DNA of 23,769 nt, taken from positions 1-23,769 of IMG/VR virus record IMGVR_UViG_3300029952_001371. One strand, given 5' to 3'. The stretch's first letter is position 1, and each line of letters begins with the position of its first letter. The position numbers were made by a program, and so were the translations under genes. Below, piece after piece: positions 5,722-18,324 of the stretch. The stretch comes from a virus. Below the pieces are notes generated by a model. The model was not told the origin of the DNA. It did not search any database and worked only from the letters and a program-made list of their open reading frames with translations.

Positions 5722-6168
5722 ATGGAAGACATTGGACATTGGCATTTTATTAAAGATTTTGATCCTGAAGAATGGGTTGGGTTCATTTATCGAATTTATG
5801 ATACTCAAACGGGAAGAATGTATATTGGTAAAAAATTTTTTTGGAAAACGATAAGAAAAATAGTCAAGAATCGAAAAAATAGAAAGAAGGTTATTAAATC
5901 TTCTGATTGGAAAACGTATACTGGTTCATCTAATTGGCTTAACAGTGAAATTGCACTATATGGTAAAGAACGGTTCCGTTTTGAAATTGAATCATTACAT
6001 GAATCTCGTGGAACCCTAGCATATGCAGAGGTAACAAAAATTATTTTGGAAGATACACTTCGCAAAACATTACCAGACGGAACAAAGGCATACTTTAACG
6101 GGTTGTGCCCCCCAATAAAATTTCGTCCAGGAAATGAAACGGAAAAGGAAAAAGAATATCGAATTTAG
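5722..6168 (+). CDS. GIY-YIG family nuclease-like protein
   Basis: A 148-residue protein with a GIY-YIG type core: GFIY (20-23) and YIG (34-36), then a basic stretch (about 41-60), the block SDWKTYTGSS (61-70) and YGKERF (80-85), E103 in YAE as the likely metal-binding glutamate, and N126 in YFNG. This block order is familiar from small phage proteins annotated as GIY-YIG nucleases, some of which act as mobile (Seg-like) endonucleases. There is no separate DNA-binding domain. It lies alone after the gene-free region, a place where mobile endonucleases are often found, but it could equally be a resident DNA-processing enzyme. The ATG has no Shine-Dalgarno sequence; a late-like box lies immediately upstream. 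Confidence 0.65.
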   Translation: MEDIGHWHFIKDFDPEEWVGFIYRIYDTQTGRMYIGKKFFWKTIRKIVKNRKNRKKVIKSSDWKTYTGSSNWLNSEIALYGKERFRFEIESLHESRGTLAYAEVTKIILEDTLRKTLPDGTKAYFNGLCPPIKFRPGNETEKEKEYRI

Positions 6169-10916: not shown

Positions 10917-11432
10917 ATGCGTATTGATGAATTAACTCGAAAAATTTATCTTGATTTAGATGGTGTATTGTGTGACTGCGCTCGAGCTGCGGCAGAATTC
11001 AACAATATTTCGGTTAAACAATTCACCGATGCAAAATGGGATAATGACTTTTGGATTAATGTTGTAAAAAATGCAAATTTAAAAGATTTTTTTGAAAATT
11101 TACATTGGGAATCTAATGGTAAAAAGTTAGTACAATTTCTTTTTGAAAATAATTTACAATTTGAAATTTTATCTAGCCCATGTTCATTTCCTAATACATC
11201 TTCCTGCATAAAAGGCAAAAAAATTTGGTTGCAAAAGCATGGATTGAGCAATATTCATGCAATATTTTCTTGTCATAAAGAAAAATACGCGGGTAATGGA
11301 AATATTTTGATTGATGATTTGCCTTTTAATATCTCAAAATGGAATTCTGCTGGTGGAATAGGAATTTTGCATAGTAATGACAATTATCAACGTACTTTTA
11401 AAATGCTCGGTGAAATATTTCCAAATCGATAA
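10917..11432 (+). CDS. HAD-superfamily phosphatase/nucleotidase-like protein
   Basis: A 171-residue HAD-fold protein. Motif I is DLDGVL (13-18) with D13 as nucleophile and D15 as acid/base; motif II is likely SS at 86-87; motif IV is LIDDLPFN (131-138) with D133 and D134. The small helical cap after motif I (FNNISVKQFTDAKWDNDFW) fits 5'(3')-deoxyribonucleotidase-like HAD proteins, which remove phosphate from nucleotides, though sugar or polynucleotide phosphate substrates are possible. The first residues, MRIDEL, lie before the fold begins and resemble the starts of several later genes. It opens the accessory operon. The ATG has no close Shine-Dalgarno sequence. Confidence 0.75.
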   Translation: MRIDELTRKIYLDLDGVLCDCARAAAEFNNISVKQFTDAKWDNDFWINVVKNANLKDFFENLHWESNGKKLVQFLFENNLQFEILSSPCSFPNTSSCIKGKKIWLQKHGLSNIHAIFSCHKEKYAGNGNILIDDLPFNISKWNSAGGIGILHSNDNYQRTFKMLGEIFPNR

Positions 11433-11451: not shown

Positions 11452-12096
11452 ATGCTGTTGAGTCAATTATTTGAAGATAAAGAGTATAAAACGGTTTGTA
11501 TTTTTCCTGGTGGATTTCATATTTTATCGCCTGGACATTTGTATGTTTGGAAATATTTAAAGAAAAAATTTCCCGAAGCAGATTTATACGCTGCTAGCTC
11601 AAATAAAACAACTGAAAGACCATTTTCTTTTAAAGAAAAACAATTTTTGGCTTCACAAGCCGGAATTCCTCCCAATAAATTTGTTGAAGTGAGTAATCCT
11701 TATAGAGCTATTGAGATAACTCGAAATTATGATCCAACCAGTACAATTTTAATTTTTGGTTTATCATCTAAAGATAAAGATAGATTATCAAATCCCATTA
11801 AAAAAGATGGAACATTATCATATTTGCAAGAATTACCTAGTACGGCAACACCATTATCAACATTTGATAAACATGCTTATTATGTTATTGTTCCGTCAGT
11901 TAAATATAAAATTTTGGGGCAGGAAATTTCATCTGCTAGTAAAATACGTCAAATGTATATAGATGGTAATGAGAATGAACGATCTCAAATAATTAGAGAA
12001 TTGTATCCTCGTTCAATGAAAGTTGATAAAATAAAAGAAATTCTCGATCGTGTACTTTTACAACCTAAAGAATTACATGAAAATGATTTGCCATGA
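11452..12096 (+). CDS. Nucleotidylyltransferase-like protein with altered HxGH motif
   Basis: A 214-residue protein of the cytidylyl/adenylyltransferase (NMNAT-like) superfamily. The nucleotide-binding start CIFPGGFHILSPGHL (16-30) aligns with the usual FxPxHxGH, but the first histidine is serine (SPGH, 26-29). The second signature reads ISSASKIR (159-166), close to ISSTxIR with T changed to A. Family members join a nucleotide to NMN, phosphopantetheine or sugars; the substrate here cannot be read. The His-to-Ser change may alter or weaken catalysis. Neighbouring ART-like and Nudix genes make an NAD-related role attractive, but that is inference. A GAGGT site precedes the start, and the stop overlaps the next ATG (ATGA). 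Confidence 0.7.
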   Translation: MLLSQLFEDKEYKTVCIFPGGFHILSPGHLYVWKYLKKKFPEADLYAASSNKTTERPFSFKEKQFLASQAGIPPNKFVEVSNPYRAIEITRNYDPTSTILIFGLSSKDKDRLSNPIKKDGTLSYLQELPSTATPLSTFDKHAYYVIVPSVKYKILGQEISSASKIRQMYIDGNENERSQIIRELYPRSMKVDKIKEILDRVLLQPKELHENDLP

Positions 12097-12365
12097 AAAT
12101 TTCAGAAATTAGGCAAAATTCGAAGATTATGTGGTCACACGAATTGGTTAAACCATTTGATGGATATTCAGCCTATAAACTTTCTGCATCGTTGGCGGGA
12201 TATGGAGAGGTTGGAGTATTTATCGTGCAAATAAAAGATAATATTTGGAAACCATTTTATATTTTCATCGATAAAGATTTTCCGTATAAATCTTTGAAAT
12301 TAATGTTGTTTAAAAAAATAATATCGATCGCTGGAAAAATGCATGGTAAATTCGGTAAGGAGTAA
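12093..12365 (+). CDS. Unknown 90-residue protein
   Basis: Overlaps the previous gene by ATGA. The product begins MKISEI, contains mixed alpha/beta sequence with an aromatic strand (IWKPFYIFIDK, about 56-66) and ends in a basic helix. No family is recognised. Its start shares the M-x-(hydrophobic)-x-E-(I/L) pattern of neighbouring genes. It is separated from the first ART-like gene by only 2 bp, and that gene's AAGGAG ribosome binding site lies in its last codons. Confidence 0.65.
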   Translation: MKISEIRQNSKIMWSHELVKPFDGYSAYKLSASLAGYGEVGVFIVQIKDNIWKPFYIFIDKDFPYKSLKLMLFKKIISIAGKMHGKFGKE

Positions 12366-12367
12366 AA

Positions 12368-13327
12368 ATGACACTAAAATATAAACAATTAAAACCCGGT
12401 AAAATGGTTGGATCTACATCATTCGTTAATAAAGAATTGCCGGTTAAAATTAACAAAAAATTTTCAGAGAATTATTTTGATTTGCCAAAAAGTCAACAAT
12501 TAATTTTTCGTAAAATGTGTCATTTTATTAAAATTAATTGTAGTCAATTTCTTAAATCGATTAAAAAAGCAAATAAATTTTTATATCGGGGAACATATAA
12601 TTCATCAAATGTTTTTATGGGAAATCCTAGGAAGGACAGAAAACCTTCAGATACCAACATTTTTGTTCAAAAAGATATAGATACCTTGCTAACAATTGGT
12701 GGATTTACTGCTTTGAGATCAAATAGTATTTTTTGCACAGGTGATTATGAACAAGCAGAAAGTTATGGAGAGGTTTATATTATTTTTCCTATCAATGGTT
12801 TTTCTTTTACGTGGGGTAATAACAGTGATTGGATACCCACAGATGATGATATTTTAGATAGTAATATTTATTTTAAGAAGCTATGTATTAAATTAAATCG
12901 ATTGGCCCATCTAGTCGATTTTATTGATATTCCATCGAAAAAAGATAATGATCTTAAGGATGAAATAATTGACGCATGTTATAACGCTGACCGATTTGAT
13001 TATACTTCCGTTTTAAATAATATTGATAAAAATATAAAAATTTTGAAGATAAGATTAAAGCAAGCTGATTTACTTGTTAAAAAATACTCAAATATAAATT
13101 CTACATATAGAGATTTACGATCTGTTATTGACAAATTAATAGTTTTGACACTGAATAAAAAAATTATTGCAAAAAATTTTTGTAATAAATATGAATTCTC
13201 AAAAACTAATTTATCGAAAGCTGTTAAGTCTGAAAATGAAATTTATATCAGCGGTCAATATATAGCTGTAAAATCAGAAGTATACGAAGAGATGTTAATG
13301 GAAGTTTTCAAAATAGGAGTGAAATGA
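12368..13327 (+). CDS. ART-like protein A (R-S-E signature), 319 residues
   Basis: The largest of four paralogues. Conserved blocks in order are LYRG (R74), GGFTALRSNSIFCT (111-124), YIIFPINGFSFTW (137-149) and ENEIYISGQYIAV (289-301). They match the R, S-x-S and E-x-E elements of arginine-type ADP-ribosyltransferases: R74 for NAD binding, S118-N-S120, and E289/E291 as catalytic glutamates. T4 Alt, ModA and ModB, which ADP-ribosylate host proteins, belong to this broad class. Copy A alone carries an extra about 100-residue charged helical insertion between the third and fourth blocks, and it keeps a full E-x-E. It lacks the MRLxEI-like start of the other copies. ART activity is inferred from motifs; fold prediction is needed. 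Confidence 0.6.
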   Translation: MTLKYKQLKPGKMVGSTSFVNKELPVKINKKFSENYFDLPKSQQLIFRKMCHFIKINCSQFLKSIKKANKFLYRGTYNSSNVFMGNPRKDRKPSDTNIFVQKDIDTLLTIGGFTALRSNSIFCTGDYEQAESYGEVYIIFPINGFSFTWGNNSDWIPTDDDILDSNIYFKKLCIKLNRLAHLVDFIDIPSKKDNDLKDEIIDACYNADRFDYTSVLNNIDKNIKILKIRLKQADLLVKKYSNINSTYRDLRSVIDKLIVLTLNKKIIAKNFCNKYEFSKTNLSKAVKSENEIYISGQYIAVKSEVYEEMLMEVFKIGVK

Positions 13328-13758
13328 AAAATTTAGAAGAAGCGTTAAAAATTGCTGTCGGCACAGAATTTCATTGGACTGCAAAAGTTCATCTTGCACA
13401 TTTTAATATTACTGGACCAAGATTTTATGAAATTCATAAATTGTTAGAATTAATTTATAAGTCTGGTGAAGATAGTTTTGATGGTATTGGCGAGGAATTA
13501 CGTGCTTTGGATATTTTCGCACCTTCAGATCCAACTAGATTGTTAGAATTATCAGTTTTACCGGTTCAACAGATGATTTTGCCCGCACAAGAAATGATTC
13601 ATGAATTGTTATTAGATAATGATCGTTTAATAAAAACTTTAGAAACGGTAAATGCATTGTCAAATGAGCATCTCGGATTGCAAAATTTTGTTCAGGGATT
13701 AATAGATATCCAAGAAAAGTATGCCTGGTTTCTTAGAAGCACAATTAAAGGTAGGTAA
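13324..13758 (+). CDS. Dps-like ferritin-family protein
   Basis: A 144-residue four-helix protein matching Dps in length and motifs. HFNITGPRFYEIH (27-38... with H27 and H38) parallels the Dps HWNVxGxxFxxLH signature, and D53-x-x-x-E57 supplies the other ferroxidase ligands. Dps proteins form dodecamers that oxidise and store iron using peroxide and, in some bacteria, coat DNA. The basic N-terminal tail used by E. coli Dps for DNA binding is absent. The start overlaps the previous stop (ATGA) and the next gene follows directly, so it is made together with the ART-like proteins. A phage copy could limit Fenton damage to DNA or have been adopted as a structural shell; neither is shown here. Confidence 0.8.
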   Translation: MKNLEEALKIAVGTEFHWTAKVHLAHFNITGPRFYEIHKLLELIYKSGEDSFDGIGEELRALDIFAPSDPTRLLELSVLPVQQMILPAQEMIHELLLDNDRLIKTLETVNALSNEHLGLQNFVQGLIDIQEKYAWFLRSTIKGR

Positions 13759-14427
13759 ATGAAAGCATCGGAAATACTAACTCATCCATTAAAACAAGAT
13801 GATCCTGAATCATTTCGAAGGAATTTTAAAGGATTGTGGGAAACAATTGAAAATAATTGTTCAGATGCTTTGAAAAGTTATCATGATGCCGGAACTATGT
13901 TATATCGCGGAGTTAATGTTTCTAAACCAATAAAATCTTTTCTTGGTCAGAATCGAGATCAACGCAATGTGGTTTCGGGGTCAAATCCAGTTATTGGGAA
14001 AATTTGTGATTTATTAATGAAAGAGGCTGGATTTAAGGCATTACGTGGGTCAAGTATTTTTTGTGGTTCAAAATATGAGGCAGCACGTTGGGGAAGAGTA
14101 CTTTATAATATTTTTCCAATTAATGGTTTTTCATTTGCTTATTCATTAAATCATACCGGATGTTCTGCAGGTAGTTATCGTTATAGTGATTTACTTTATG
14201 AAAAAATTAAAAAGTATTACGAGTCTGATTTGATTAATGCTAAATTTCCGTTAACGAAAAGTCAACTTAAACTAGTGTCACAACAATTTGTTGACGATAA
14301 CCAAATGAATCAGACTGATTTAATTCCAGCTTTGCAATATGGCAAAGATGTTTGGATAACAGGCAGATATATTGCATTGCATTCAGCAACATATAATGCT
14401 GCATTTTCTAAAAAGGTGTTAGGATGA
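13759..14427 (+). CDS. ART-like protein B (R-S-E signature, E replaced by D), 222 residues
   Basis: Second paralogue. The blocks are LYRG (R50), GFKALRGSSIFCG (91-103), YNIFPINGFSFAY and KDVWITGRYIAL (196-207). The position of the catalytic glutamate is aspartate (D197), and the first serine of S-x-S is glycine (G97-S-S). It may therefore be inactive, altered in specificity, or a decoy. It starts MKASEI immediately after the Dps-like stop codon, and its stop overlaps the next ATG. It is the most diverged copy, with an added segment around residues 140-185. Confidence 0.58.
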   Translation: MKASEILTHPLKQDDPESFRRNFKGLWETIENNCSDALKSYHDAGTMLYRGVNVSKPIKSFLGQNRDQRNVVSGSNPVIGKICDLLMKEAGFKALRGSSIFCGSKYEAARWGRVLYNIFPINGFSFAYSLNHTGCSAGSYRYSDLLYEKIKKYYESDLINAKFPLTKSQLKLVSQQFVDDNQMNQTDLIPALQYGKDVWITGRYIALHSATYNAAFSKKVLG

Positions 14428-14612
14428 GATTAAAAGAAATAATTAGAGAAGAAGGATCATGTGGTACAAGTTCTGGTTCTATTGCAACCGTAAATACACC
14501 TTTGGGTTCTAATAGCCCAAAAGATGGGCAATTTTTTGGCGGAAATCCAAATAGTTCAATCTATACTCCTATTAAGAAAAATAGGAAGAAAAGAAAATCT
14601 GTTGTAAAATAG
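14424..14612 (+). CDS. Small Gly/Ser-rich protein with lysine-rich tail, 62 residues
   Basis: Overlaps copy B by ATGA. It begins MRLKEIIREEG, continues with a flexible stretch containing SGSIATVNTPLG, and ends with a strongly basic tail (KKNRKKRKSVVK). The composition is that of a disordered nucleic-acid-binding or internal head protein rather than an enzyme. I have seen similar SGSxATVxTPLG phrases in phage proteins of unknown role. Any packaging function is inference. Confidence 0.6.
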   Translation: MRLKEIIREEGSCGTSSGSIATVNTPLGSNSPKDGQFFGGNPNSSIYTPIKKNRKKRKSVVK

Positions 14613-14622
14613 GGGTTTTCAT

Positions 14623-15411
14623 ATGAAAAAGAAAAATAAAAAATCAGTACTCGTTTCTAATAAACCATTTAGAGAACCCAATGTTTTGGGGCCAACAGAT
14701 AAAGTAAATTCAATGGGACAAATTTTGGGGGCCCCGGAAAAATATCCAACGCCCTTAAATAAAAAATTTGTTGGCTGCTCGAAAGATAGTTCTACATCTA
14801 ATGAAATTCTTAGAGAAGATGAATTAAATTATAATGAATTTACAAATGCTTCTAAAGCAGTAGATAAAAAATGTCCAGTCTGCGGAATTTCATTTAAAAA
14901 TATTCATTCCAAAAGTCAAAAATTTTGTTCAAGAGAATGTGATAGCAAAGGCAGAATTTTGCAAAAATTAGAAGAAGCATGGAATAACCAGACTAAAAAA
15001 GCTGGATTTATTCCATATTTTAAAGATAATAATGGTATTATTAGAATGATGTTTGTAATGTCATCTGATTCTGCATATGGAGGAAGCAGATTTCAACTTG
15101 CCAAAGGTCATATTGATAAAGGGGAATCGGGGCTAGTTGCCGCATTAAGAGAAGCAAATGAAGAATGTGGGCTTAAACAATCAAATTTGATTTTGTCAAC
15201 TGTAAAGGTTGGATGGAAAGGGGAAATTCATGGAAATATAGAAAAAAGTGAAATGGTTATTTATATTGGCGAAGTTAATGATCCAATAGATTTTGATAAA
15301 CCAGGTTATGAAGTTAGTAAAACAAAATGGATGACGTCTGATGAATTTTTTGCATATGGAAGAAAAAGTCAGATTAATATTGTTAAATTTTGTGCAGGTA
15401 GAATCCAATGA
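14623..15411 (+). CDS. Zinc-finger plus Nudix hydrolase protein
   Basis: A 262-residue two-domain protein. Residues 1-80 are low complexity. A zinc knuckle follows with C84-x-x-C87 and C102-x-x-x-C106. The Nudix domain spans about 127-260 and has a perfect Nudix box, G162-x5-E168-x7-R176-E177-x2-E180-E181-x-G183, with the metal-binding glutamates intact. Nudix enzymes cleave nucleoside diphosphates linked to another group, such as ADP-ribose, NAD, dNTPs or capped RNA. The zinc finger may direct it to nucleic acid or protein. Being embedded between ART-like genes, it could remove or recycle ADP-ribose, but the sequence does not fix the substrate. An AGGGG site precedes the start and the stop overlaps the next ATG. 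Confidence 0.85.
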   Translation: MKKKNKKSVLVSNKPFREPNVLGPTDKVNSMGQILGAPEKYPTPLNKKFVGCSKDSSTSNEILREDELNYNEFTNASKAVDKKCPVCGISFKNIHSKSQKFCSRECDSKGRILQKLEEAWNNQTKKAGFIPYFKDNNGIIRMMFVMSSDSAYGGSRFQLAKGHIDKGESGLVAALREANEECGLKQSNLILSTVKVGWKGEIHGNIEKSEMVIYIGEVNDPIDFDKPGYEVSKTKWMTSDEFFAYGRKSQINIVKFCAGRIQ

Positions 15412-15989
15412 GATTGAATGAAATTGATAATTCATTAATGGATCATGATATTAAAATAGTTGAAACTATTAAAAAGAATTGTTCGGATAGTTTATCGATT
15501 TTTATCGAAAATAAAAGTATTTTATATCGAGGAATTAAAAGGCAGGATACGTATTTCACCGGGGAATCTCCGGTTAATAGAATTCCTGTGGACACGCCTA
15601 AATTTTTGTCATTTGTCATCGATGATAAATTAGAATCTTGTGGATTTAATGCATTACGATCAAATAGTATTTTTTGCACGAGTAATATTAATCATGCGAG
15701 TGCATATAGTTATACTCCTAATAGTTTGTACGTAATTTTTCCTATTAATGGATTTGATTATAGCTATTGTAAATATAACGATCTAACTGAAGAAATAGAA
15801 TGGAATACCGCTGAAATTCAAAATATGTCGACAAAAGAATTTATCCGTAATTTTGGATTTAAAGATATTAATTTGGGGTTTGGATTATGTAATGGAGTGG
15901 AAGTTTATATTCACGGAAAATATATTGCTGTACAAAAGAAATCTTTTTCTGATTATTGGCTCTACGAACATTTGGGAATTAATTTATGA
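15408..15989 (+). CDS. ART-like protein C (R-S-E signature), 193 residues
   Basis: Third paralogue and near the minimal length. Blocks are LYRG (R41), GFNALRSNSIFCT (79-91), YVIFPINGFDYSY and VEVYIHGKYIAV (164-175) with E165 in the catalytic position; the residue two before it is not glutamate. It begins MRLNEI. It is closest to copy D, sharing for instance GESP-x-NR-x-PVD after the YRG block and YIHGKYIAV at the end. Starts and stops overlap both neighbours. Confidence 0.6.
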   Translation: MRLNEIDNSLMDHDIKIVETIKKNCSDSLSIFIENKSILYRGIKRQDTYFTGESPVNRIPVDTPKFLSFVIDDKLESCGFNALRSNSIFCTSNINHASAYSYTPNSLYVIFPINGFDYSYCKYNDLTEEIEWNTAEIQNMSTKEFIRNFGFKDINLGFGLCNGVEVYIHGKYIAVQKKSFSDYWLYEHLGINL

Positions 15990-16561
15990 GCCTTTATGAA
16001 ATAATTGAACCAGAAATAGATTTTATTTCTGTTATAGAAAATAATTGTAAAGAAATTATGGAAGATTATCGATTTGCTAATAAATATCTTTTTCGTGGAA
16101 TAAAACGGATTGATTCGATAATCTTAGGTGAATCTCCGACTAATAGAAAACCAGTTGATATGAATATACGAATTCAAAGTAAAATAGATGATAATTTAAA
16201 AAATAGTGGATTTAAGGCATTACGATCAAATAGTATATTTTGTTCATCCTCTTATTCTACCGCAAAATATTATGGTTATGATAATCCATATATTATTTTT
16301 CCTTTTGATGGATTTGACTTTACATATGCTAATGGAATTACTGATTTTTTCGAGCAAGTGGGTTTGACAGGTAATATATGGTTCGAATTGGAAGATTTAA
16401 ATTTTGTTTCTAATTTTGGATTTGAAAAAACTAATTTGCCACTGGCATTAGATAAGTGTTACGAAGTTTATATTCACGGAAAATATATTGCTGTAAAATG
16501 CACGGCAAAAAATACGTCCTTAATGGAAAAATTATTGGGAATTAATGTTCAAAATAAATAA
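15986..16561 (+). CDS. ART-like protein D (R-S-E signature), 191 residues
   Basis: Fourth paralogue, last gene of the operon. Blocks are LFRG (R37), GFKALRSNSIFCS (75-87), YIIFPFDGFDFTY and YEVYIHGKYIAV (159-170) with E160. It begins MSLYEI. Likeness to copy C, its neighbour, suggests a tandem duplication followed by divergence in the middle segment. No clear terminator follows; a promoter-like sequence begins at the next base. Confidence 0.6.
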   Translation: MSLYEIIEPEIDFISVIENNCKEIMEDYRFANKYLFRGIKRIDSIILGESPTNRKPVDMNIRIQSKIDDNLKNSGFKALRSNSIFCSSSYSTAKYYGYDNPYIIFPFDGFDFTYANGITDFFEQVGLTGNIWFELEDLNFVSNFGFEKTNLPLALDKCYEVYIHGKYIAVKCTAKNTSLMEKLLGINVQNK

Positions 16562-17334: not shown

Positions 17335-18324
17335 ATGAATTATCAAAAAATTTACAATCAATTAATTAAATCGCGAATTAATCAACTGAAAATAAGTAAT
17401 TTTATCGTCGAACATCATCATATAATCCCTAGAAGTTTTGGTGGAAAAGATATACCTGAAAATTTAGTATACTTATCGCTTAAAGAACATTTCTTCGCAC
17501 ATTTATTGTTATACAAAATATATAAAAATGATCGAGTAAAATCTGCAAAAATGGCCGCCGCGTTAAGAAGGATGATTCAATCCAAAAAATTTTTGATATC
17601 CAGTAATCATTATGTTATCGCGCGTACTGCTTGGACAGAAAATCATCCAAGCAGATTGGCTGAAGTTAAAACAAAAATAAAAAATTCGATACACCGACGC
17701 AGATTAGTTGATGGTTGGCATATAATATTATGCGCATGTGGGTGTGGTAAGGAAGTTGCATTAGCTAAGAATGCAGATGATAAAAAAAATAAGAAGCGAT
17801 ATTGTACTAATCATAAGCCATTATATGCGTGTGCTTGTGGATGCGGCGAATTAGTGACGCTACCTAGAAATGTTCGCATACCAGGACATCATAAAAAGGT
17901 GAAATGTGCTTGCGGATGCGGCAACGATACATATAGGGAAGTTAATATTAATTATATTCAACCTAAAACTTATTGCAATGGCCATCAACCACAAAGTGTA
18001 CGTGATAGACAAAGTAATAGCCTTCATATTACACTTATGAATATGAATAAAACTGATATGACAACCAGGATTAAAAATTCTTGGGGTAAATCAGATAAAA
18101 AGAAACGATCGGATGCCATTAGACGGGGAAAAGGGTCTAAATATCAAATTCAATTTGTAGATGGAAAAATACAAGAATTTTGGTCATATGATGATGTTTT
18201 TATGATAACTGGATATACATACGATCATATTAAATACCGAATTAAACGATATTGTGGCCTTCTTAAATCAGGAGCAACCGTAACAGTAATATTTAAATAT
18301 ACAGGTAAATTAAAAAATGAATGA
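17335..18324 (+). mobile_element. HNH homing endonuclease gene inserted in the DNA polymerase gene (encodes 329 residues)
   Basis: The coding region runs over the whole interval. The product has an N-terminal HNH motif, EHHHIIPRSFGG (26-37, histidines 27-29), N43 in PENLVYL and H52/H56 in EHFFAH. Three repeated cysteine clusters CACGCG start at 133, 166 and 191, each likely a zinc knuckle with downstream Cys/His. A C-terminal segment (about 265-310, ending in DDVFMITGYTYDHIKYRIK) looks like a modular DNA-binding region of phage homing enzymes. It has a strong AGGAGG site (17324-17329). Its stop overlaps the start of the large polymerase fragment (ATGAATGA). There is no room for a group I intron core outside the ORF, so it looks like a free-standing homing gene. 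Confidence 0.82.

What the first reader, a model, noticed from the sequence alone, without database searches (positions are those of the whole stretch)
12368..16561. Four tandem, diverged ADP-ribosyltransferase-like paralogues in one phage operon
Four genes (12368, 13759, 15408, 15986) share in the same order an (L/F)-x-RG block, GF-x-ALR-x-x-SIFC, IFP-x-x-GF, and an (E/D)-(V/I)-(Y/W)-I-x-G-x-YIA block. This parallels the R, S-x-S and E elements of R-S-E type ADP-ribosyltransferases (T4 Alt, ModA, ModB). One copy keeps E-x-E, two keep the last E, one has D. T4 uses three ARTs with different host targets; four clustered copies here, minimal in size and varying in the middle, suggest target diversification of host-takeover effectors.
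Basis: partly seen in the sequence, partly recalled or inferred. Interest (0 to 1): 0.82.

Follow-up and report, generated by a model that had tools for sequence, protein, structure and literature searches.

The report
Multi-copy ART-like phage head-cargo family
[quoted passage not shown] the enzyme activity and the packaging are both still inferred.

Summary
Confirmed: four homologous genes (12368, 13759, 15408, 15986) share the stated blocks in order. They sit in one coupled operon but are interleaved with a Dps-like, a tiny and a NUDIX gene. They belong to a phage-only family (PHROGs 11975/12810/15932, function unknown; no Pfam hit; none found in cellular genomes). It has 173 unique ORFs here and up to 15 per contig; Agrobacterium phage Atu_ph07 has an 11-gene array.

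ART reading: plausible, unproven. R, a late Ser and a final acid (E 125, D 5 of 130) are conserved, and order and secondary structure fit T4 Mod-type ARTs. Profile similarity to ModA/ModB is weak, but above decoys and stronger than Mod-to-Alt. Against: E-x-E and the first Ser are not conserved, two other Args are more invariant, and two confident AF2 models match no PDB fold.

New: half the members, and unrelated genes of the same block, start M[KR]xx[EQ][LIF], like T4 Alt and gp24. Some copies follow T4-type gp21/gp23 genes. The Atu_ph07 array lies in a virion-protein gene cluster. A Zeta-type kinase abuts the family in all 15 loci carrying it and is fused twice; NUDIX is adjacent in 11 of 13. 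Best reading: head-packaged, injected, diversified ART-like effectors.

The parts
12368..13327 (+). P1, ART-like paralogue, 319 aa, with a roughly 80-aa insert; motifs YRG, RSNSIFC, IFPINGF, ENEIYISGQYIA
   Evidence: family profile E 1e-67; PHROG 11975 E 2e-38
13759..14427 (+). P2, ART-like paralogue, 222 aa; GSSIFC and D instead of the last E (KDVWITG); member of a conserved Asp clade; N-terminus MKASEI
15408..15989 (+). P3, ART-like paralogue, 193 aa; N-terminus MRLNEI; 59% identical orthologue in another phage contig
15986..16561 (+). P4, ART-like paralogue, 191 aa; N-terminus MSLYEIIE; AF2 model pLDDT 91.6, no PDB fold match
10917..11432 (+). nucleotidase-like gene (PHROG 2643, 5'-3' deoxyribonucleotidase) with the same N-terminal tag (MRIDEL)
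11452..12096 (+). nucleotidyltransferase-like gene (weak CTP_transf_like; GGFH..SPGH and ISSASKIR) with tag MLLSQLFEDK; its homologue is fused to an ART-like domain in L141:1636-3237
12093..12365 (+). 90-aa ORF of unknown function with tag MKISEI
13324..13758 (+). Dps/ferritin-like gene between P1 and P2
   Evidence: Pfam Ferritin E 4e-12; NCBIfam DpsA 2e-5; adjacent in other loci too
14424..14612 (+). 62-aa ORF with tag MRLKEIIREEG and a CGTSSGSI...DGQFFGG peptide
   Evidence: a similar start is seen on a NUDIX protein in L095
14623..15411 (+). NUDIX hydrolase with an N-terminal Cys-rich finger, between P2 and P3
   Evidence: Pfam NUDIX 2.5e-9; family-adjacent in 11 of 13 loci

Best explanation
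The four genes are members of a phage-specific enzyme family built on a divergent ADP-ribosyltransferase-type domain. Most likely the proteins are made late, carried into the T4-type prohead by a short N-terminal peptide of the T4 Alt/gp24 kind, clipped by the gp21-type protease, ejected with the DNA, and then use NAD+ to modify several host molecules. Each copy would have its own target because the region between the IFP strand and the final acid varies. The Zeta-type kinase, NUDIX and nucleotidyltransferase genes would be co-delivered partners in the same nucleotide/NAD chemistry. Shown: homology, copy number, conservation pattern, operon, gene neighbourhood, N-terminal peptide, T4-type head genes in related contigs. 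Inferred: ART fold, NAD use, packaging, protease cleavage, host targets.
For: Motif order R ... S ... A--(Y/F)(G) ... strand ... E and predicted element order beta(R)-beta-alpha-beta-alpha-beta-beta-alpha-beta(E)-beta match the order in the T4 Mod sequences. hhalign against 15 T4 Mod-type ART sequences: one balanced profile gives probability 40% (P 3e-4), other profiles 2-6%; 40 random subsets average score 23.0 against decoys 14.7 (95th percentile 21.6); the YRG block falls on YRG in 22 of 22 top alignments that contain it. Bona fide Mod versus Alt scores lower (0.8%), so sub-threshold scores are expected for true ART pairs here. Acid at the E position in 130/130, R50 118/136, S96 126/138. 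N-terminal tag 80/157 versus 42/852 other ORFs, and 7/10 versus 0/17 window genes; T4 Alt MELITELFDE, gp24 MAKINELLRE. Family genes directly downstream of T4-type portal/gp21/gp23 in L147 and downstream of gp21/gp23 in L115. Atu_ph07 array = gp53-63, inside CDS 31-76 where 29 products were found in virions (PMC6102473). Zeta kinase within 150 bp in 15/15 loci (P 7e-12), NUDIX in 11/13.
Against: No Pfam match and no ART hit at sequence level. Foldseek against the PDB finds nothing for two confident, mutually divergent models. E-x-E in only 12/130 and first Ser in 83/138; R67 and R93 are more invariant than the proposed NAD arginine, which canonical R-S-E ARTs do not predict. One decoy reached a higher hhalign score (36.4) than any of the random-subset Mod comparisons (maximum 26.4). 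T4 Alt itself shows no hhalign similarity to the family. No individual array product could be checked in the virion proteome (supplement not available). P1 lacks the clear tag, and so do about half of the members.
Confidence: 0.55

Rival explanations
1. A new enzyme family with its own fold, not an ART: head-delivered effectors that act with the adjacent Zeta-type kinase on nucleotides, nucleotide sugars or RNA ends; the YRG and E resemblance is convergence.
For: No PDB fold match for two confident models; three highly conserved Args plus Ser, Pro and Glu; constant adjacency of, and two independent fusions to, a Zeta/AAA_33 kinase.
Against: Collinear similarity to T4 Mod ARTs above decoys; element order as in ARTs; NUDIX and nucleotidyltransferase company fits NAD chemistry.
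Confidence: 0.27
2. Structural or decoration proteins of the virion with no enzymatic activity, in which conserved polar residues stabilise the fold.
For: The Atu_ph07 array lies in a virion-protein cluster (PMC6102473); early weak sequence link to the Goslar gp77 decorator.
Against: The Goslar link is one helix plus YRG and disappears with a broad profile; the near-invariant R, R, S, E pattern is enzyme-like; fusions to kinase and nucleotidyltransferase domains.
Confidence: 0.08
3. ART-like but expressed early inside the cell like ModA/ModB (not packaged), or acting as NAD+ glycohydrolases or counter-defence factors rather than protein modifiers.
For: ModA and ModB are a similar size and lie side by side in T4; the E(-2) residue that supports transferase chemistry is mostly absent; NUDIX and NTase neighbours suit NAD turnover.
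Against: N-terminal tag and head-gene context; ModA and ModB lack the tag.
Confidence: 0.1

Closest known systems
T4 ModA / ModB (Mod family, R-S-E clade ARTs)
   Same: About 200 aa, neighbouring genes, LYRG(I/V) block, helix after the Ser motif, following hydrophobic strand and final E-(x)-(M/Y)-I strand in the same order; best profile similarity found.
   Different: No E-x-E in most members, extra invariant Args, no significant match by standard tools, carries an N-terminal tag that ModA/B lack, many copies per genome.
T4 Alt (head-packaged ART)
   Same: N-terminal peptide of the MELITELF type, T4-type head genes in related contigs, proposed injection with the DNA (PMC9503650, PMC9958956).
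   Different: Alt is 682 aa and single copy; no measurable profile similarity to the family.
PHROGs 11975, 12810, 15932
   Same: The family itself: 134, 95 and 81 of 137 members match.
   Different: These PHROGs carry no function; nothing is claimed there about ART, packaging or partners.
Multi-ART jumbo phages such as Bacillus phage G (at least 10 ARTs) surveyed in PMC9503650
   Same: Many ART genes in one large myovirus genome, proposed head delivery, Nudix company.
   Different: Those ARTs belong to named ART families; the main text of that survey mentions neither Agrobacterium, SCTP-2 nor Zeta kinases; whether its supplement includes any member was not checked.

Membership tests
R-S-E clade ADP-ribosyltransferase | ART fold | tested here: inconclusive
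   AF2 models pLDDT 91.6 and 91.2 with matching element order but no Foldseek PDB match; coordinates not available for DALI
R-S-E clade ADP-ribosyltransferase | Arg on the first core strand (YRG) | tested here: met
   R in 118/136 (S 8, H 5, K 5), R in all four window copies
R-S-E clade ADP-ribosyltransferase | S-x-S/T motif | tested here: inconclusive
   second Ser 126/138, first Ser 83/138; P2 has GSS; by helix register the IFCTS stretch, not SNS, may be the equivalent (by eye)
R-S-E clade ADP-ribosyltransferase | E/Q-x-E with catalytic last Glu | tested here: not met
   last acid 130/130 (E 125, D 5), but E at -2 in only 12/130
R-S-E clade ADP-ribosyltransferase | significant match to a curated ART model | tested here: not met
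   Pfam none; PDB sequences none
R-S-E clade ADP-ribosyltransferase | NAD+ binding and ADP-ribose transfer | not testable with these tools
   needs protein
T4 Alt-like head-packaged effector | N-terminal prohead/capsid-targeting peptide | tested here: inconclusive
   tag enriched 80/157 versus 42/852 and like Alt/gp24 by eye; function not shown; [quoted passage not shown]
T4 Alt-like head-packaged effector | found in virions | tested here: inconclusive
   Atu_ph07 array gp53-63 inside CDS 31-76, 29 of 46 detected; individual products not listed in the main text
T4 Alt-like head-packaged effector | T4-type head proteins and gp21 protease in the same phages | tested here: met
   gp20/gp21/gp23 homologues in L147, gp21/gp23 in L115 and L124, gp23 in L011 and others
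PHROG 11975 family | profile match | tested here: met
   all four window copies, E 2e-38 to 1e-18

The most novel reading that the evidence does not exclude
A previously unrecognised, head-delivered enzyme superfamily, amplified to 15 or more copies per phage, that works with a Zeta-type kinase and NUDIX partners, with a fold not represented in the PDB and a three-Arg/Ser/Glu active site: an injected multi-effector system of large T4-type phages unlike known ARTs.
Probability: 0.27. Interest if true: 0.82.

Novelty: new variant of a known kind. Interest (0 to 1): 0.62.

Why it matters
T4 carries one head-packaged ART and makes two more in the cell. If this family is what it appears to be, some large T4-type phages inject a whole panel of diverged ART-like effectors with a dedicated kinase and NUDIX partner, so host takeover or counter-defence would begin with many simultaneous NAD-dependent modifications. 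It gives a function hypothesis for three anonymous PHROGs and a testable N-terminal packaging signal that could reveal further injected cargo in large phages.

Tried and rejected
Goslar gp77/'baseplate spoke gp220' PDB link: identical 42-residue stretch in a 212-aa protein, one helix plus YRG only, gone with the broad profile. Strongest single phmmer hit (Klebsiella phage Metamorpho ART versus P3, E 5e-5): in register only at LYRG, off-register afterwards, so not used as proof. The 40% hhalign probability is one of 45 profiles; the random-subset mean is the fair figure. Cellular homologues: two scans of GTDB genomes found none, at the sensitivity of that method. A KptA panel through the genome search was not obtainable. 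One search was a mistaken query (arbitrary letters) and is ignored. Alignment A3 was too divergent to seed wide scans. Zeta toxin-antitoxin reading: not favoured, since many of the kinase partners carry the same kind of N-terminal tag as the family; presence of an epsilon-type antitoxin was not tested.

Full report
What is there. The window holds four homologous ORFs at the coordinates given. They lie in one + strand operon, mostly with 4-bp overlaps or direct abutment, interleaved with a Dps/ferritin-like gene (13324), a 62-aa ORF (14424) and a NUDIX gene (14623); only 15408 and 15986 are true neighbours. Upstream in the same block are a nucleotidase-like gene (10917), a nucleotidyltransferase-like gene (11452) and a 90-aa ORF (12093).

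The family. Profiles and scans of IMG/VR collected 173 unique ORFs from many large phage contigs. Among sequenced phages tblastn finds only Agrobacterium phage Atu_ph07 and, weakly, Salicola phage SCTP-2. A structure search of viral models finds 27 significant matches, none named as an ART: Atu_ph07, uncultured phages, Achromobacter phage Motura and unnamed others. Copy number is high: Atu_ph07 has 11 consecutive genes, one with two domains; one 242-kb contig has 11 at one place and 4 at another (L022 and L071); about 25 of 33 representative loci have two or more. Pfam has no model; PHROGs 11975, 12810 and 15932 cover 134, 95 and 81 of 137 members, all of unknown function. Two scans of 84,980 cellular genomes found no relative. 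P3 and P4 have one-to-one orthologues in another phage, and P2 belongs to a supported clade with Asp in place of the last Glu, so the diversity is old and maintained.

Is it an ART? For: the order (Y/F)RG, Ser-rich loop, A--(Y/F)G helix, hydrophobic strand, E-hydrophobic-x-hydrophobic strand equals that of T4 ModA/ModB, and AF2 models of two divergent members (pLDDT 91.6 and 91.2) give the corresponding element order. hhalign against 15 Mod-type sequences is weak but repeatable: 40 random 20-member profiles average 23.0 against 14.7 for decoys (95th percentile 21.6, one decoy at 36.4); in all 22 top alignments that include the YRG block it is paired with the Mod YRG; one balanced profile reaches 40%. 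A Mod HMM scores family members above reversed, shuffled and unrelated ORFs (rank-sum P 8e-18, 9e-17, 1e-31; members are related, so these are not independent). As a yardstick, two undoubted relatives, Mod and Alt, score lower against each other (0.8%, with a single Alt sequence). Against: no PDB fold match for either model; first Ser only 83/138, E at -2 only 12/130; Arg at the YRG position is replaced in 18 of 136, while two other Args are 134/137 and 132/137. The family therefore works like an ART at best; as a member of the R-S-E clade it fails the E-x-E test. My probability for an ART-type domain is about 0.65.

Head cargo. Half of the members (80/157) start M[KR]xx[EQ][LIFM] against 42/852 other ORFs (Fisher 2e-43; family members are related, so the P value overstates independence). 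The tag also heads unrelated proteins of the same block: in the window 7 of 10 genes between 10917 and 16561 and 0 of 17 elsewhere (P 1.4e-4, looser pattern Mxxx[EQ][LIFM]), and non-family genes near the family more than distant ones (40/298 versus 12/237, P 0.001). T4 Alt starts MELITELFDE and gp24 MAKINELLRE; gp24 loses its first 10 residues to the prohead protease, and a roughly 10-residue N-terminal sequence targets T4 internal proteins to the prohead core (PMC9958956). In Atu_ph07 all of gp54-gp63 begin M[KR](W/L)-x-QL-x-E. Most Zeta-type partners have [ILVF]xEG just before the P-loop domain (13/18). T4-type portal, gp21 protease and gp23 genes lie directly upstream of family genes in L147, gp21/gp23 upstream in L115, and gp20, gp21 or gp23 occur in L124, L011 and others. 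Atu_ph07 gp numbers were counted from the record and agree with gp18 and gp70 of the paper; the array is gp53-63, inside CDS 31-76, from which 29 products were identified in purified virions (PMC6102473). Which ones could not be checked. The context agrees with the general proposal that phage ARTs and Nudix proteins are packaged (PMC9503650).

Partners. A Zeta/AAA_33 P-loop kinase lies within 150 bp of a family gene in all 15 representative loci that have a stand-alone copy counted there (expected 18%; P 7e-12) and is fused to the family domain in both orders (L083:16157-18490, L071:9245-10720); its best solved relative is Zeta toxin 1gvn. NUDIX genes are adjacent in 11 of 13 loci. The nucleotidyltransferase-like protein of the window has a homologue fused to an ART-like domain (L141:1636-3237); its substrate is unknown, and it is not shown to be an NMNAT.

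Verdict. Observation confirmed; interpretation partly supported. Most likely a divergent ART-type, head-packaged effector family, amplified and diversified; new as a family and as a multi-copy delivery arrangement, but of a known kind (T4 Alt/Mod; phage G already has at least 10 ARTs, PMC9503650). The main uncertainty is the fold.

Noticed in passing
L083:16157-18490 and L071:9245-10720: Independent fusions, in opposite domain order, of the family domain to a Zeta-toxin/AAA_33 type kinase; stand-alone kinases sit beside the family in 15 of 15 loci.
   Followed up: partly
window 14424-14612 and L095:11858-12574: A CGTSSGSI...DGQFFGG peptide behind the same MRLKE(I/F) start, as a 62-aa ORF in the window and as the N-terminus of a NUDIX protein in L095; function unknown.
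   Followed up: no
window 5722-6168: ORF matches PHROG 447 called 'NAD synthetase' but its sequence (GFIYRIYDTQTGRMYIGKK) and its other hits are GIY-YIG homing-endonuclease-like; the PHROG name looks wrong.
   Followed up: no
window 17335-18324: HNH homing-endonuclease-like ORF overlapping the start of the DNA polymerase gene at 18317.
   Followed up: no
L141:1636-3237 (same as L003:8323-9924): Nucleotidyltransferase-like domain fused to an ART-like domain and a Cys-containing tail.
   Followed up: partly
L148:9716-13432, L068:8861-10966: Very long proteins (1239 and 702 aa) carrying one family domain with otherwise unassigned regions.
   Followed up: no
family profile positions 67 and 93: Two Args are more conserved (134/137, 132/137) than the proposed NAD-binding Arg and have no counterpart in canonical R-S-E ARTs; unexplained.
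   Followed up: partly
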